Origin: Chrysophaeum taylorii
Lineage: Eukaryota; Sar; Pelagophyceae; Pelagomonadales; Pelagomonadaceae
Assembly: GCA_029834535.1 (NCBI GenBank)
Contig: JAQMWT010000528.1
Span: forward strand, 1 to 64,000
DNA: 64,000 bases
Reading direction: 5' to 3'
Shown here: positions 8,487-47,965 of the stretch, piece after piece
How the letters are laid out: each line of letters opens with the position of its first letter
How positions within the stretch are numbered: position 1 is the stretch's first letter
Made by a program: the position numbers and the translations under genes
The notes under the pieces: model-generated
What the model was told of the DNA's origin: nothing
What the model saw: only the letters and a program-made list of their open reading frames with translations
Database searches by the model: none

Positions 8487-9559
8487 CCTAACTACTAATC
8501 GACAGATGTTTGTCTGTTTGTTTGTTTGTTTGTTTGTTTGTCTGTCTGTCCCTCGATTTAGGGTAAGGATCAGGTAGGCGCGAGAGTAAGGATCAGGTAG
8601 GCGCGAGAGCCAGACAGTGATCCTCCAAGCCGTCTACGGCGACCTCGCAGACTATTTCCACGACCCGCGGCGGCTCTTTCAGCGCGCCATTCTCACGCCC
8701 CGTCGAAACGATGTTGTCGATGCTGACAACGCGCGCATGACCGCGGCCTTTTTTTCCCGGAGACGAGGCGTCGGAGTTCTTTTCGGCTGACTAGGCTGGG
8801 TCGGAAGACGACGCCTCGCTCTTTACAGTAGAGTTTTCAACTCCCTGACAACCAACGGCATGCTGACTTTGAGCGCGAGCTTAAGGTCTTCGAAACCTCG
8901 ACCCGTCGCACGGCCACTGCAACGGTACCAGATACATGATCGATCGTGTCGTGTCACCGAGGCTCCTCCAACCTGTATCCCTTAAGGCCCGCCGACGCCA
9001 AACGATCAACAAGAACCAGGGCCACAAGAGCCAGGGCCAGACGCCCCGCGAGGTCGGCGTCCTCTTGCCCAAGCCCGTCTTCTGTCACGTCCAGCTCTAC
9101 GTGGCTCTCTGTCGATCGGCAACCCCGAGGATATGCTCTTCTGAGTCGACGACTCCACCCTACCCCACACGTGCTGCGCAATACCGATAAGCCCCCTCCC
9201 GGCGTCTACACGCGCACTATAGGTGAACTTACTGGGACCAGGTGAATTTACTGGGGTTGGAGATTGGGATTAGGTGAATATAGTGACCAGGTGAACTTAC
9301 TCGGACCAGATGAACATACTGGGGGTTTTAGAGTAAACTGAAAGGTTAGCGGCGTAAGCGGATCGAAGCAGCTTAGATTGGCGGAGGCGACAGCGACGAG
9401 CTCGAAGGAGTGGTGTGAGCACGAGTGGGTTTACGCCGAACTTACTGGGGTTAGAGATTTGGACTAGGTGAACTTACTAACCAGGTGAACTTACTAGGAC
9501 CAGGTGAACTTACTGGGGTTAGAGATTGGGACTAGGTGAACTTACTGGCCTGCACTTGT
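8487..9559 (+). mobile_element. Helitron-like element, copy 2 (head-to-tail with copy 1)
   Basis: It has the same start, microsatellite, helicase remnant and terminal minisatellite as copy 1. The helicase C-terminus is cleaner here: from about 8936 one frame reads through 'LKARRRQTINK...SQGQTPREVGVLLP' to 'PVFCHVQLYVALCR'. A small in-frame duplication, 'NQGHKSQGQ', lies inside the motif. The direct head-to-tail junction with copy 1 is what rolling-circle replication or nested insertion at a copied end would give. Confidence 0.75.
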
Positions 9560-9754
9560 AGTTGCTTAACTCAAAGTAAATGCAGAACCCTGACTTTCAA
9601 TAAAAGCGCCTGCTTGAAGTGTCTATATTTATGCGTTGGTCGTCCAAGCGAAAACCTGGGAATTAAAAAATTCCCTGGGGGGACTGTGAATGAATGAATG
9701 AATGACCCAGCAGGGATCTTAGATTCAGGGTAATAAGAAGACCAGCTTTTAGAA

Positions 9755-39894: not shown

Positions 39895-40295
39895 TATAGT
39901 TGGGGGCCGACCGCGCGATTGGATTGAATAACCTCGCCAAGGAATTGTACGAGGAGGCGATCGGAATCCGCCCGCACCCGGAATTTCTTCGGAACTTTTG
40001 TCTTTTGAATGATAAATCTTTGGAAAGCGCAAGAGGCGAATACGATTTTTTGCTCCGCCGCCGGTGCGTCTACCTCGAGCGCCGGCACGGACTACCCATT
40101 GGAGCGTCCCTGAACAACCTAGCCCTCCTTTTCGCGGCGCAGGGTCGCTTTGAAGACGCGTTTTGTCGCGAAGCAGAAAACCCGAAAATGGAATCAAGAA
40201 TCGAAACGACTGCGTCGCTTCTCCGCAGCCGTCTGTCGCCTTTATCTCAAACACGGCTCGTCTCTACTTTCTCCAAGGGAAGCACGAACAGCGCT
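39895..40295 (+). pseudogene. TPR protein fragment, C-terminal end, convergent with WD40 gene
   Basis: Pieces of kinesin-light-chain-type TPR units: GLNNLAKELYEEAIGI, ERRHGLPIGASLNNLALLF, AAQGRFEDAF, then, in another frame, NTARLYFLQGKHEQ. The 'NNLA.L...GR.EEA' spacing is typical. It runs into the end of the minus-strand WD40 gene at about 40295 with no spacer. A related junction (shared phrase coding AENPK.ESRIETTASLL) recurs at 45880-45945. Two or more frame changes, so a relic. Confidence 0.55.
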
Positions 40296-43200
40296 TTTTT
40301 TCCAGCGATCGGGTCCCAGACGCGAACCGTCTTGTCCTCGGAGGAGCTCGCCAGCCGCGTAAGGGTCTTGATGATCGCCTCGAAGGCCACCACGCACCCG
40401 ATCCTCGTGGCCTTCGAGAGCGTGGAGTTGGCGGCCTGTGGTCGGGTCCCAAACACGTACAGTCTTATTTATCATCGGAGCACGTCGCGAGGCGCACCTC
40501 ATCATCCATCTCGAATGCCACGACGCCAATTACCGCATTCCGGTGGCCCTCCAAATTGTTGATTTCACGGCCCTCGGTGAGGTCCCACGCGCGTAGCGTT
40601 CTGAATCCCAAGAACAGCTCGCGACTCTTACCTCTTCGTTTATCTTGAAGACCGTCACGCCATTTACCGAACTCCGGTAGCCCTCGAGCTTGTGGAGTTC
40701 GCGGCCTGAGGTCGGGTCCCACACGCGCACCGTATTGTCGATGGAGCAGCTCGCAAGGCATATGGCATCGTTCAATTTGAATGCCACGACGCCATATACC
40801 CGATACCGATGCCCCTCGAGGTTCTGGAGTTCGGAGCGAGAGCTCGGATCGCGCACCGTCCCGTCCTCAGAGCTGCTCGCCAACCGCGGCTCGCCATCCC
40901 GAGTCATGCTGCTGAAAGCCGCCAGGCCACACACTTCTTGTCTTCGTGGGTCTCGAGCTCAGACGTTCGTTCTACCGCTCGCGATCGGGTCCCAGATACG
41001 CACCGTCCCGTCGGCTGAGCAGCTCGCGAGCCGCATCACACCTTCGCTCGGCTCGAACGTCACCAGGCGTTCCACCGAGTCATCGTGGCCCACGAGTATG
41101 TTGAGTTGCTGGCCTTCGAACGGGTTCCAGATCCGCACCGTCGCGTCGTCAGAGCCACTCGCCAGCAACCACGTGCCGTCGCTCGTCAAGAACGCTGAAA
41201 AGGACTGTACCGAACCCTGGTGGCCCTCGAGTTTGTGGAGTTCGCAGCCGTCGATCGGGTTCCAGACGCGCACCGTGCTGTCATCGCCAGAGCCGCTCGC
41301 CAGCCGTGGGCCATCGCTCGCCTCGAATGCCACCACGCTCGCCACCGAATTCTGATGGCCTTCGAGTTTAAGGAGTTGGCGAGCCTCGATCGGGTTCCAG
41401 ACGCGCACTGTGGTGTCGCCGGAGCAGCTCGCGAGGCACATGGTGCTGTTCATCTTGAACGCCACTACACCATTCACCTCATTCTGGTGGCCCTCGAGTT
41501 TGTGGAGTTCGAAGGTCGGGTTCCAGACGCGCACCGTCTTATCAACAGAGCAACCCGCGAGGCACGTGGTGTCGTTCATTTCGAGCGTCGTCACGCAAAG
41601 CACCGAAGCCTCGTGTCCCACTATGTTGTGGAGTTCGACGCCTGCATTCGGGTCCCAGACGCGCAGTGTCTGTGTCTGTCTGTGTTGTCGAAAGAACAGC
41701 TAGCCAACAGTTGCGTGCCGTCGCTCGTCTCAAACGCCACCACACCATTCACCCAACTCTCGTGCCCCTCGAGTTTCAAGAGCTCACGGCCCGCCGTTGG
41801 GTCCCACACGCGCACCGTCCGGTCATCGGAGCAGCTCGCCAAACGCGGTTCGCCATCGCTCGTAATAAAAGCCGTCACAGCCGTCACAGGATATCCTCGT
41901 GGCCCTCGAGAACGCACTGGAGTGGCGCATTGGCAGGCGTGAGGCTCGCGTGGCGCGGCGTGATCATAGGCGGTCGCATACTCCGAGCCATCCGCCGCGC
42001 GTCTCGAGCCAATCGAGAAACGACCATCATTCATACGCGAGTTCTCGGCAGGCTCCAGCACGCGCTGCCAGAGCTCATCTGCGAGGACCTCGAACCCCCA
42101 AACCCCCACGTGGTTTTGCGAAAGCACCAGAGCCCGACGCAAGAGCGTCGCCTCGCCCCCCGGAACTTTGGTCGAGTCGGTGATGAGTTCGGCCATCTGG
42201 CCCGCCCCAACTCGCAAAGTCACGAAGTGCAGCGAGCACAGCAGCGCCAACGCGACGTTTCGCAGTTTCGCCGCGACGAGATGCGTGATCGCCCATCGCA
42301 AAGCATAATCATCTGGAGGTCGCGCTCGTCGTCACCCGCACCGCTCCACTCCTCGCGAATCACCGCCGCCGCGTGCGCGTCGCTCTCGTTTACGTTCCTC
42401 CGAACATCGAGTTCGCGAAGGAGCGCGGCGACGCACGCGGCACGGCGGTGCGCAGCGACGCGGTCGATGAAGTACGGATCCTCCTCGCTGCGGAATTCGT
42501 ATGGGAACTCACCCATTAGCCAGTCAGGAATGGACTTGTGAAAAAGCTGTAGACGCACCCGTCGTCGCGCACGGGAAAGAGCTGCGACAGCAACCCAACG
42601 ATATCCTTGCACCTTGGGTCGAAGCGAGGGCCAAATTGGTTCGCGCTTTGAGGTCTCCTCGAGAGGAGGTGACGACCACGGCGACCCGGGCTGGGAGCTT
42701 GGGGAACTCGTGCGCGATGAGATCGAGGAGGTCGTTCTTGGTCGCGTGCTCGGCCTCGTCGAGCGCGTCGATCACGACGAGTAGGCGACCATCCTTGGAA
42801 AGTTCGATGCTGGCGAGCGGCTCGAGCAGTAGGCAGTCGAACAGCTGCGCGATATCGTTCAGGTCGCACCTTCTTGCCGCGAGCACCTCCTCAACTAGTT
42901 TCCGGTACGTCGGCAGCGCTCGTGCGATGTGGTACGCGAGCGACTTGATCATGCGGCACGGGTCTCGCTTGGCTGCGTTGTTGTGTTGGATCAGGTGGAC
43001 GGCGATTACGTCGCGCGGTCTCCAAGCAGCGCATGCAGCTTGGCGACCATGGCCGTCTTGCCGAAACCTGGCCCGGCGAACAACACACAGCATCGCGGAC
43101 CGTCGGTGTTGCGAACCCAGGAAATGAGGAAATCGAGAATCCAGTCGCGCGTGCCGGGGACGAATTGCTCGACGTGGTTGCACTTGAGTTTGCCTTTGAA

Positions 43201-43618
43201 CGAGAGTGGGCGCAGCTGCGACTCGAGCGACGGAGGAGCGTTGCCGCTGACTGCGCGCGGCACCTCCTCCATAACTAACGGGACCTTTTCGGGAAAATAG
43301 GCACCTCGGAACACTTCAAAGTGCGCGTCCGGTGCTACCGGGTTCGCTCGCGCGCCGCAGATGTCCTCCGAGGCCTTTATTGAGACGCAGTTCGCGTTGA
43401 AGGCGATAGCCGATGCCGCTGTGGTGCGTGCGCCCGTGCCGTACGGCGATGTAAGGCCGCGATTCAAAAACCCCCCGCAGCAGACCTGGCCCGAGGCTCC
43501 GTCGTGGGTGCAGAGGGTTTGCAACTTGGCCCGTTTTTCGGGGTCGCTCTTGCAACACTTTTGGATGAGAACCTGAGCTCCGACGCGGCGGTCGAGGTCC
43601 TTGGGGAACTTACCGTAT
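40243..43618 (-). pseudogene. STAND NTPase: DAC C-terminal part, NACHT, WD40 array
   Basis: Minus strand, from the Helitron edge. An open frame gives YGKFPKDLDRRVGAQVLIQ, then 'THDGASGQV' and 'YGTGARTTAASAIA' with 'CVSIKASED' and 'FEVFRGAYF'. These are the second half of a DAC (DisA_N) fold, in which 'DGA' is kept and 'RHR' is 'RTT'. A NACHT module follows: Walker A AGPGFGKTAMV (43049-43078) and Walker B LLVVIDALDEAE (42749-42784), then winged-helix-like FHKSIPDWLMGEFPYE. From about 41940 to 40245 at least twelve WD40 units follow (LASCSxDxTVRVWDP...KLEGHxxxVxGVVAF). The frame changes near 43015 (apparently an extra CG dinucleotide), 42560 and several times in the WD array. NLR-like proteins sense ligands and oligomerise, and the WD40 array would be the sensor. 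Confidence 0.75.
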
Positions 43619-44695
43619 CTTAACTACTAATCGACAGATGTTTGTCTGTTTGTTTGTTTGTTTGTTTGTCTGTTTGTTTGTCTTTAAATGTCGACTGCTA
43701 AGAGGGGGTTTGTTTTTGACTCCTAAGAGGTCTGTTTGTTTGTCTTAAAATGTCGACTGCTAAGAGGGGGGGGTGCGTGTGGGGAGCATGAAGGATGTGG
43801 GTGGGTTTGTGGGGTCTGTTTGTTTGTCCCTCGATTTAGGGTAAGGATCAGGTTAGGCGCGAGAGTAAGGATCAGGTGGGCGCGAGAGCCAGACAGTGAT
43901 CCTCCAAGCCGTCTACAGCGACCTCGCAGACTATTTCCACGAGCCGCGGCGGCTCTTTCAGCGCGCCATTCTCACGCCCCGTCGAAACGATGTTGTCGAT
44001 GCTGACAACGCGCGCATGACCGCGGCCTTTTTTTCCCGGAGACGAGGCGTCGGAGTTCTTTTCGGCCGACTAGGTTGGGTCGGAAGCCGACGCCTCGCTC
44101 TTTACAGTCGAGTTTTCAACTCCCTGACAACCAACGGCATGCTGACTTTGATCGCGAGCTTAAAGTCTTCGCAACCTCGACCCGTCGCACGGCCACTGCA
44201 AAGGTCGGCGTCCTCTTGTCCACAAGCCCGTCTTCTGCCACGTCCAGCTCTACGTGGCTCTCTGTCGATCGGCAACCCCGAGGATATCCTCTTCTTGGTC
44301 GACGACTCCACCCTACTCCACACGTGCTGCGCAATACCGATAAGCCCCCTCCCAGCGTCTACACGCGCACTATAGGTTAACTTACTGGGACCAGGTGAAC
44401 TTACTGGGGTTAGAGATTGGGACTAGGTGAACTTAGTGACCAGGTGAACTTACTGAGACCACGTGTGAACTTACTGGGGTTTTTAGAGTGAACGCAAAGG
44501 CTAGCGGCGTGTACGGATAAAAGCATCTTAGATTGGCGGAGGTGAGAGCGACGAGCTCGAAGGAGTGGTGTGAGCACGAGTGGGTTTACGCCGAACTTAC
44601 TGGGGTTAGAGATTTGGACTAGGTGAACTTACTGACCAGGTGAACTTACTGGGGTTAGAGATTGGGACTAGGTGAACTTACTGGCCTGCACTTGT
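43619..44695 (+). mobile_element. Helitron-like element, copy 3, inside the DAC-NACHT-WD40 gene
   Basis: Same ends as copies 1, 2 and 4. After the (GTYT)n tract it carries a doubled 'atgtcgactgctaagaggg' phrase and the 'gtggggagcatgaaggatg' segment also found in copy 4 and, inverted, at 58860. Its helicase remnant lacks about 135 bp, and the deletion removes 'QTINKSQGQT'. Flanks are 'accgtat' on the left and 'ttcgaac' on the right. Joining the flanks on the minus strand restores one frame across the host gene, so this is a true insertion with no obvious loss of host sequence. Confidence 0.75.
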
Positions 44696-45214
44696 TTCGA
44701 ACAAACTGAAAAGTCGGGCTGCGCGAACGGTAGTTTGGGATCTGGAGCGAGGAGCTCGGTCGAGTCTCCGATGATGAACAAAAAGCCGTGCGCAGGCTGC
44801 TTCTCGCCGAGGCCCTCGGTCGCGATCATGCGCGCGGCCTCGAGGGTCGCAGCGACGACATCCTCGCGGATGTGTGCGGTCAACTTCCCGTCGCCCTGCG
44901 GCAACATCGACGAATTGGCGAAAAGTCCGTCGAGTGCCCGTACGAAGAAGGTTCACAAGGAGATGTACATCACTAGACCTAGCACGCTTTTGGCCCAACA
45001 TCTCCAAAAAAAACCCAAAAATGAACGGCCTGATCCTTGGCGAACGCGTCTGTGCGGCGTCCTGGGGGGGTGCCAAGCCCTCGGTGGACCTCGCGGGGCT
45101 CCTGGCGATCATGCCGGTGCCGGCGACGGGCGAAGTCGATCCGCCGCTTGCCCCGGAACTTAAGGCCCCAAGCGAAGCGAAGAGCGTACCGGGCTCGTCG
45201 GGACGATGCTGCAA
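44696..45214 (-). pseudogene. N-terminal part of the DAC-NACHT-WD40 gene (DAC first half)
   Basis: Minus frame 44907-44696 reads DVVAATLEAARMIATEGLG, EKQPAHGFLFIIGDSTELL and PFAQPDFSVCSK. This fits the start of diadenylate-cyclase domains ('...iA.EGREGkpvGtlFVIGD...'). Upstream the frame changes into Ser/Pro/Ala-rich text (SGASGGSTSPVAGTGMIARS), probably a disordered N-terminus, possibly with an intron near 44960. The frame at 44696 continues in phase with the frame at 43618 across the Helitron. DAC enzymes make c-di-AMP in bacteria and archaea, and I infer a sensor or degenerate role here. Confidence 0.6.
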
Positions 45215-46170: not shown

Positions 46171-47890
46171 ACCATCAAATACATACGCGCGGCGGACGAC
46201 ACGAAAGTCTCGAGTCTGTTTCGTCGCCGAATTTCAGATCCGTATGTTCCAGTACGTGCTGTTCAATTGCGCGGACCGTATCATCATTCTGATCGTCTGT
46301 TGCCTTCATCTCGAACACGTCGTCGAACTCGCCAGCCGCGGAATCTTGTTGGTCGCCTCGAAGGACACCACGCACATAACTCTGGTGGCCTTCGAGTTTG
46401 TGGAGTTGGCGGACTGTGGTCATATCCCTGACGCGGAGGACCGACCGTTTTGTCGTGGTGGGAACAGCTCGCGAGGCACGCGGCGCCCTTCATCTTGAAT
46501 GCCACCACGCCAAGCACGCAATCCTTCGCGAGCGTGGAGTTGGCGGCCTGTGGTCGGGTCCCAAACACGCACCGTCTCTTCACTGGAGCAGCTCGCGAGG
46601 CGCATCTCATCATCCATCTCGAATCCCACGACACCACGCACCGCGGTGGCCCTCAATTTTTGCGCAGCCCTTCTTCAGTAAGGTCCCGCGCGCGTAGTGG
46701 TGAATCGATCGAACAGCAGGTCGCGAGCCGCATTTCGTCGTTTATCTTGAAGGCCGTCGCACACAAACATACCGGAACCCGGTGGCCCTTGAGCTTGGGA
46801 CGGAGTTCGCGGCCCGCGGTCGCGCGCACTGTACAGCTCGCGGTGCATACGGCATCGTTAAAGTTGTGCATGTTACGATGTCGTTAATTTGGACCCCCGA
46901 TGGCCGTCAAGCTTCTTGAGAGCGAGAGCTCGGATCCCAGACGCGCACCGTCCCATCCCCAGAGCAGCTCGCAGAACGCCGTCCCTCGTTCTAAAAGCAG
47001 CCAGACCAATCACTGCGTCTTCTTGGGTCTCGACCTCAGACGTTAGACCGCTCGCGATCGGGTCCCAGATACGCACCGTCCTGTCCCACGAGCAGCTCGC
47101 CAGCCGCAGAACGCGCCTTCGCTCAGCTCAAACGCCACCAGGCCGTCGCGGCCCTCGAGTTTGTCGACTTGCTGACCATCAACCGGGTTCCAGATCCGCA
47201 CCGTCTTGTATCGAAAGAGCAACTCGCCAACAACCACGTGCCATCATCGCTCGCTCGACAAGAACGCCGCCAAGCTCGACGCCCAACACTGGTGGCCCTC
47301 GAGTTTATGGAGTTCGCAGCCGTCGATCGGGTTCGTCCCTTTTAGCCGCTCGCCAGCCGCGGGCCATCGCTCGTCTCGAATAATGCCACCACGCTGGTCA
47401 CCGATTCGAGTCTAAGGAGTTCGCGGGCCTCCGTCGGGTTCCAGATACGCACGGTCGCGTCGCCGGAGCAGCTCGCGAGGCAGACACGCGTGGTGTTGTT
47501 CATCTCGAAGGCCACTGTCCCTCGAGATTGCGGCGTTCGCGGCCTGAGGTCGGGTCCCACACGCGCACCGTCTTATCTAAAGAGCAGCTCGCGAGGCGCG
47601 CGGCGTCGTTCGTATCGAACGCCGCCAAGCACAAGATTCTCGTGTCCCACGAATTTTCGGATGTGGACTCCCTGCCTTGGGGTCCCAGAAGCGCAGCCTC
47701 TTGTCGTGAGAGCAGCTCGCCAACAGTTGCGCGTTCCGTCGCTCGTCTCAAACAACACCATATACATTTAACTCGTGCCCCTCGAGTTTCAAAACCTCAC
47801 GGCCTGCCATTGGGTCCGTCCCACGCGCGCACCGTCTGGTCATCGGATCAGCTCGCCAGCCGCGGCTCGCCTTGGCGGCAGCCGTGTTAA
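46170..47890 (-). pseudogene. WD40-array relic, second copy
   Basis: At least ten degraded WD40 units on the minus strand (RLASCSSEETVRVWDPTTG, KTVRIWNPVDGQQVDKLEG, RLASCSLDKTVRVWDPTSG). They are clearly related to the array at 40243-41940 but broken far more often. It stops abruptly at about 47890. No NACHT or DAC part is attached, so it is a truncated duplicate. Confidence 0.65.
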
Positions 47891-47965
47891 TAGTGGCTTC
47901 AAGGCTCTCTTTACAATCGGAGGTTTTGAACCGGTGGACGTCGGCGGCACACTCGTCGGTGTTCT

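What the first reader, a model, noticed from the sequence alone, without database searches (positions are those of the whole stretch)
40243..45214. A DAC (DisA_N-like)-NACHT-WD40 protein: possible nucleotide-second-messenger sensor built into an NLR-like gene
Two halves of a diadenylate-cyclase-type fold are readable on the minus strand. The first has 'TEG.GEKQPAHGFLFIIGD'. The second has 'DGA', then 'GTGARTTAASAIA', 'VSIKASED' and 'FEVFRG'. They are followed in the same frame by a NACHT P-loop and then a WD40 array. DAC domains are known from bacterial and archaeal c-di-AMP synthases. I know of no described fusion to NACHT-WD40 in an alga. 'RHR' is replaced by 'RTT', so it may bind rather than make a nucleotide.
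Basis: partly seen in the sequence, partly recalled or inferred. Interest (0 to 1): 0.86.

Follow-up and report, generated by a model that had tools for sequence, protein, structure and literature searches.

The report
Cyclase-like domain on algal immune-type receptors
A marine alga carries a family of immune-receptor-like proteins whose front end appears to descend from the bacterial enzyme that makes the signal molecule c-di-AMP, with a key enzyme residue lost, and the copy in this window is a broken one.

The parts
44695..44874 (-). first half of the DAC-like domain (matches P0001 residues 11-70, 82% identical)
   Evidence: tblastn; alignment; (45% to C418 over residues 20-68)
43621..44694 (-). 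1074-bp insert that splits the DAC-like domain at 'SVCSK | YGKFPKDL'; several CAGTAAGTTCACC units are visible in it; absent from the intact single-frame paralogues
43261..43620 (-). second half of the DAC-like domain, with GARTTAA (43434-43414) at the RHR site and 'IKASED'; residues of the catalytic DGA site deleted at about 43503/43504
43012..43260 (-). linker and NACHT P-loop GPGFGKT (43074-43054), same frame as the second half
42629..43015 (-). rest of NACHT (NPHP3_N-type, Walker B 'LVVIDALDEAE'), after a frame change
   Evidence: NPHP3_N 2.5e-14; P0001 275-402, 88%
42316..42653 (-). remnant of the region after NACHT (P0001 513-627) in two frames; P0001 residues 403-512 missing
41897..42316 (-). 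region between NACHT and WD40, another frame (weak APAF1_C match, E 0.034)
40265..41896 (-). WD40 array remnant in three frames, with an in-frame stop at 40961-40959

Best explanation
The window holds a decayed member of a Chrysophaeum taylorii family of NLR-like STAND receptors. Intact members read: DAC-derived domain (about 185 residues), NACHT ATPase, intermediate region, WD40 array. Most likely mechanism: the WD40 array holds the receptor off and recognises a trigger; NACHT exchanges nucleotide and oligomerises; this brings several DAC-derived heads together. DAC domains act only as head-to-head pairs, so such clustering suits them as an output module. Because the RHR His is lost in every fused copy examined, the head probably no longer makes c-di-AMP; it more likely signals as a nucleotide-binding or oligomerisation module, possibly reading a nucleotide made by the free-standing paralogue C418 (CTAYLR_008461), the only one of the 13 aligned copies with DGA and RHR both intact. 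Shown by tools: homology, domain order, fold of two relatives, motif loss, purifying selection, exchange of the N-terminal domain on one chassis, decay of the window copy. Inferred: oligomerisation, output role, loss of catalysis, link to C418, role in immunity.
Against: No NACHT-fused DAC-like domain was folded; the fold rests on C418 (mean pLDDT 53) and P0008 (73), which are 32-35% and 38-41% identical to the NACHT-fused copies. Pfam DAC scores on the fused copies are weak or absent, and the profile-profile match to ten bacterial/phage DACs covers only 53 columns (probability 63%, E 7e-5 with C418 in the profile; 31%, 5.1e-4 without). A change of G in DGA left activity intact in MtDacA, so the DGA change alone does not prove inactivity. 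The MLKL_N matches are below Pfam's cut-off. No STING ligand-binding domain was found, but that search had no positive control. No expression or biochemical data were examined.
Confidence: 0.6

Rival explanations
1. Nucleotide-sensor reading: the degenerate DAC pocket binds c-di-AMP or a related nucleotide, from bacteria or from C418, and this switches the NACHT-WD40 protein on or off.
For: First Arg of the RHR site kept in 12 of 12 copies and in C418, P0008 and P0009; domain kept by selection; c-di-AMP is seen bound to a DisA D75N mutant (title of PDB 4yxm).
Against: The domain sits where output domains sit and is exchanged with PNP_UDP and MLKL_N-like domains; the repeats are the usual recognition end of NLRs (PMC4986451, passages). 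RHR to AAA abolished ATP binding in MtDacA.
Confidence: 0.25
2. The fused domains are still cyclases, or carry out a changed nucleotidyl-transfer reaction, and become active when NACHT clusters them.
For: DAC activity requires pairing (PMC8573169); two NACHT-fused copies keep DGA (C396, C599) and C418 keeps both motifs; RelA_SpoT is a described N-terminal NLR domain in fungi (PMC4986451).
Against: RHR is lost in 12 of 12 paralogues; the catalytic Asp is lost in 2 of 12 (C165, C454:89 kb).
Confidence: 0.12
3. The DAC likeness is superficial: an unrelated alpha/beta domain with short motif matches.
For: Weak direct Pfam scores on fused copies (9 of 13 rows of A2 match DAC at E<=10, best 1.9e-7 for C418); short profile-profile overlap; PDB sequence search not significant; no relative confirmed in prokaryote or viral contigs.
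Against: C418 over the curated cut-off; for the domain part of two separate models the best fold matches are DACs; P0002, C454:85 kb and C677 align with the DAC profile over positions 10-107 of 119, both halves, though at E 0.082, 0.093 and 0.017.
Confidence: 0.03
4. The window copy is a working gene with introns rather than a pseudogene.
For: The 1074-bp gap falls between two well-conserved halves. dN/dS of the window's second half against 11 paralogues is 0.25-0.63, and 9 of the 11 values lie within the range of the intact pairs.
Against: Intact paralogues are single-frame there; adjoining segments overlap or abut in different frames with no room for an intron (43015/43012, 42543/42534, 41675/41672); about 110 residues and the DGA-site stretch are missing; dN/dS to the two nearest paralogues is 0.56 and 0.63.
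Confidence: 0.04

Closest known systems
Fungal NWD/HNWD-type NLRs (HET-E and kin: N-terminal effector, NACHT, WD40)
   Same: Tripartite order, WD40 array C-terminal, N-terminal domain exchanged on a shared NACHT-WD40 chassis (PMC4986451, passages; here)
   Different: A DAC-derived N-terminal domain; none was seen in the passages of PMC4986451 read here, which speak of 12 annotation classes of N-terminal domains and, besides, of RelA_SpoT
Bacterial/archaeal diadenylate cyclases (DisA, CdaA, CdaS, CdaM; Pfam PF02457)
   Same: Fold of two relatives, order of DGA-, RHR- and SE-like sites; C418 keeps DGA and RHR
   Different: RHR lost in 12 of 12 other paralogues; three conserved cysteines (in VCCGG, and around IKAS); five copies fused to NACHT-WD40 in a eukaryote
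DAC-containing phage-defence system DS-2 (CBASS + DAC)
   Same: A DAC used in a defence setting
   Different: Separate catalytic gene in bacteria, not an NLR domain; predicted catalytic residues are needed there (PMC13092281, passages)

Membership tests
Diadenylate cyclase domain PF02457 (as homology) | Profile score over the curated cut-off | tested here: inconclusive
   Met by C418 only: 30.2-31.1 bits vs 27. Below it: P0008 20.9, C677 15.2, C600 13.4, P0002 12.9, C454:85 kb 12.8; window pieces none
Diadenylate cyclase domain PF02457 (as homology) | DAC fold | tested here: met
Active diadenylate cyclase | DGA and RHR motifs | tested here: not met
   Fused and other paralogues: 0 of 12 RHR, 2 of 12 DGA; C418 alone of 13 has both
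Active diadenylate cyclase | c-di-AMP synthesis in vitro | not testable with these tools
   -
NLR-like STAND NTPase (NACHT) | P-loop, Walker B, NACHT/NPHP3_N profile | tested here: met
   Four intact fused ORFs 79.7-82.1 bits vs 24.8 for NPHP3_N; window 54.2 bits but broken
NLR-like STAND NTPase (NACHT) | N-terminal effector-type domain, C-terminal repeats | tested here: met
   DAC-like head, WD40 tail; other heads on the chassis: PNP_UDP_1 over the cut-off, MLKL_N below it. That the head acts as effector was not tested
NLR-like STAND NTPase (NACHT) | Ligand-triggered oligomerisation | not testable with these tools
   -
Functional gene (window copy) | Open frame across the domains | tested here: not met
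   Six frame changes, insert, deletions

The most novel reading that the evidence does not exclude
A eukaryotic cyclic-dinucleotide-type system built from DAC domains: a free-standing synthase (C418, DGA and RHR intact) plus about a dozen paralogues with degenerate DAC heads, wired to NACHT-WD40, to an unnamed middle domain (in one gene model with LRRs), or to an ankyrin-kinase-NACHT chassis, as an alga's innate immune network.
Probability: 0.2. Interest if true: 0.92.

Novelty: new variant of a known kind. Interest (0 to 1): 0.73.

Why it matters
DAC domains are known to me, and described in the abstracts and passages seen, from bacteria and archaea. Here one is kept by selection in an alga and used, in several architectures, where NLRs carry their output domain. 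That adds a head derived from a c-di-AMP enzyme beside RelA_SpoT and PNP_UDP, fits repeated recruitment of nucleotide enzymes into immune-type receptors, and gives a testable pair (C418 and the fused heads) for the question whether any eukaryote makes or reads a DAC product.

Full report
What is in the window. On the minus strand of 44874-40265 lies a gene remnant that reads, in order, DAC-like first half, insert, DAC-like second half, linker and NACHT P-loop, rest of NACHT, an intermediate region, WD40 array. Compared with the intact paralogue P0001 (1385 aa), best-scoring tblastn rows place residues 11-70 at 44874-44695, 70-276 at 43620-43012, 275-402 at 43015-42629, 513-553 at 42653-42534, 550-627 at 42543-42316, 630-841 at 42316-41675 and 838-1270 at 41672-40365, with a last WD40 piece at 40396-40265; the frames run -2, -2, -1, -3, -2, -1, -3, -1. 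So the frame changes six times, P0001 residues 403-512 are absent, and 1074 bp split the DAC-like domain. Neighbouring pieces abut or overlap, which leaves no room for introns at those places. It is a pseudogene. The dN/dS of its second half to 11 paralogues is 0.25-0.63, highest (0.56, 0.63) to the two nearest, C454:65 kb and C454:60 kb; 9 of the 11 values are within the range of intact pairs, so this is weak support only.

'TEGLGEKQPAHGFLFIIGD', 'GTGARTTAASAIA', 'VSIKASED' and 'FEVFRG' are all present. The 'DGA' is a trap: most intact copies read D-N-A or D-G-A, then I/V-V-V-D-G; the first triplet is the DAC active-site position, and the window lacks six residues there, which leaves the second DG next to an Ala. 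In the P0008 model this place lies in a strand (residues 94-98).

The organism and the family. The window lies in a 70.8-Mb, 697-contig genome. Proteins on contigs of the same lengths (113,456; 118,254; 85,797; 59,938; 104,915 bp) are named in NCBI as Chrysophaeum taylorii, CTAYLR_ numbers, a pelagophyte (PMC10366177, passages; the paper describes annotation with RNA-seq, and its main text does not hold the words NACHT, diadenylate or DAC). Searches with the window piece, with C418 and with P0008 show DAC-like copies at C454 (60, 65, 85 and 89 kb), C165 (49 kb, and pieces at 42-43 kb), C396, C599, C309, C575, C600, C677 (two), C418, a broken copy at C675, the window, and short pieces at C670 and C524. 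Five carry NACHT-WD40: C454:60 and 65 kb, C165 and C396 in single frames, C599 over two ORFs. Five carry a shared middle domain of about 460 aa that Pfam does not name (C575, C309, C600, C454:85 and 89 kb). The NCBI model of one of them, P0002, ends in LRRs, but the genomic open frame stops where the LRRs begin, so that link rests on the gene model. C309's 3406-aa frame goes on with a sub-threshold MLKL_N match, ankyrins, a protein kinase, a sub-threshold NACHT match and a long ankyrin array. C418 stands alone.

Active site. At the RHR site the 12 C. taylorii paralogues aligned besides C418 read RTR (6), RTK (2), RTT, RTQ, RTG and RSR; at the DGA site DNA (7), DGA (2), HNA, ENA and DSA. P0008 has DGA and RYR, P0009 DGA and RNQ. 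The first Arg is kept in all of them. In M. tuberculosis DacA, changing RHR to AAA abolished ATP binding and activity, while G73A in DGA kept activity (PMC3328451, passages). So synthesis of c-di-AMP by the fused heads is unlikely, though not disproved. They are not neutral leftovers: 55 of 55 pairs among 11 paralogues have dN/dS 0.20-0.55.

Position in the receptor. The stretch of P0001 from residue 195, just behind the DAC-like domain, to the start of the WD40 array aligns at 39% with C28, whose upstream part is PNP_UDP_1 (32.3 bits, cut-off 25.1), and at 42% with C359, whose upstream part weakly matches MLKL_N (21.8 bits, cut-off 27); C44 is like C359 (19.8 bits). The second C359 gene (L020) was read but not scanned. 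In a scan of the genome with NPHP3_N, 14 matches were listed: 7 in DAC-type genes (two of them in C599, one the window), 4 in these other-headed genes, 3 elsewhere. Swapping of heads on similar NACHT domains is described for fungal NLRs, where the N-terminal domain is the effector and RelA_SpoT is one of the heads (PMC4986451, passages). DACs need head-to-head pairs and probably higher oligomers to act (PMC8573169, passages). This is why I prefer an output role driven by NACHT clustering, with ligand binding by the head as the main rival.

Spread. Three protein searches of 5.77 billion sequences returned nine proteins, seven of them from C. taylorii; P0008 (source 'lgn') and P0009 (an MMETSP transcript, species not shown) are the others. 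None shows a DAC-NACHT-WD40 protein outside C. taylorii, but candidates must share exact 5-residue words and fall in a length window, so absence elsewhere is not proven. In the DAC tree 11 C. taylorii paralogues group together (99/99) apart from C418, P0008 and P0009, with 7 of 11 inner forks open and a long-branch warning.

In print. Searches of the held library showed me no paper on a DAC-NLR fusion or a eukaryotic DAC: one search listed two papers, of which PMC13092281 was read in passages (prokaryotic defence) and the other seen as a listing only; one search returned none; some searches were judged from the 15, 15, 10 and 8 listed entries out of 215, 241, 364 and 10 papers. Most subscription papers are not held.

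Noticed in passing
window 46321-47930 (minus): Further frame-shifted WD40 fragments upstream of the remnant, 25-58% identical to P0003 in the rows printed: probably a second decayed WD40 gene.
   Followed up: no
window 43621-44694: Insert with several CAGTAAGTTCACC units that look like scattered 5' splice sites, plus AAACAAACAGAC runs; origin not determined.
   Followed up: no
L017 (G000:C28, match at 9475-9723, minus): PNP_UDP-NACHT protein (1855-aa open frame, WD40-like start visible) on the same chassis; PNP_UDP is also a head of fungal and coral NLRs (PMC4986451 passage).
   Followed up: partly
L018, L019, L020 (G000:C359 and C44): MLKL_N-like helical head before the same NACHT chassis; Pfam match below the cut-off for L018 and L019, L020 not scanned.
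   Followed up: partly
L046/L047 (G000:C309:612866-623083): One 3406-aa open frame: DAC-like, unnamed middle domain, sub-threshold MLKL_N match, ankyrins, protein kinase, sub-threshold NACHT match, long ankyrin array.
   Followed up: partly
L044:958-2430 (minus) (G000:C165): ORF with a caspase/CHAT-like His...NACSS pattern (by eye; Pfam silent) followed by a DAC-like first half; a second-half match lies at C165:42727-42897.
   Followed up: partly
L043, L046, L048, L050 middle region: About 460-aa domain shared by five DAC-like paralogues and, at 28-30%, by four places on C398 and C324; no Pfam match for the two copies scanned alone.
   Followed up: partly
L001 (G000:C301): Apparent bacterial contaminant contig (38% GC) with folP-like and CdaA-type genes in the algal assembly.
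   Followed up: partly
P0008 residues 182-221: Asn/Gly-rich, low-confidence tail after the DAC domain of a 221-aa protein on a 7.6-kb contig of unstated organism; what follows is unknown.
   Followed up: no
A6 alignment (DAC-like family): Three cysteines invariant in all ten aligned members (in VCCGG, before and after IKAS): possible metal or redox site; no cysteine is invariant in the bacterial/phage set A5.
   Followed up: no
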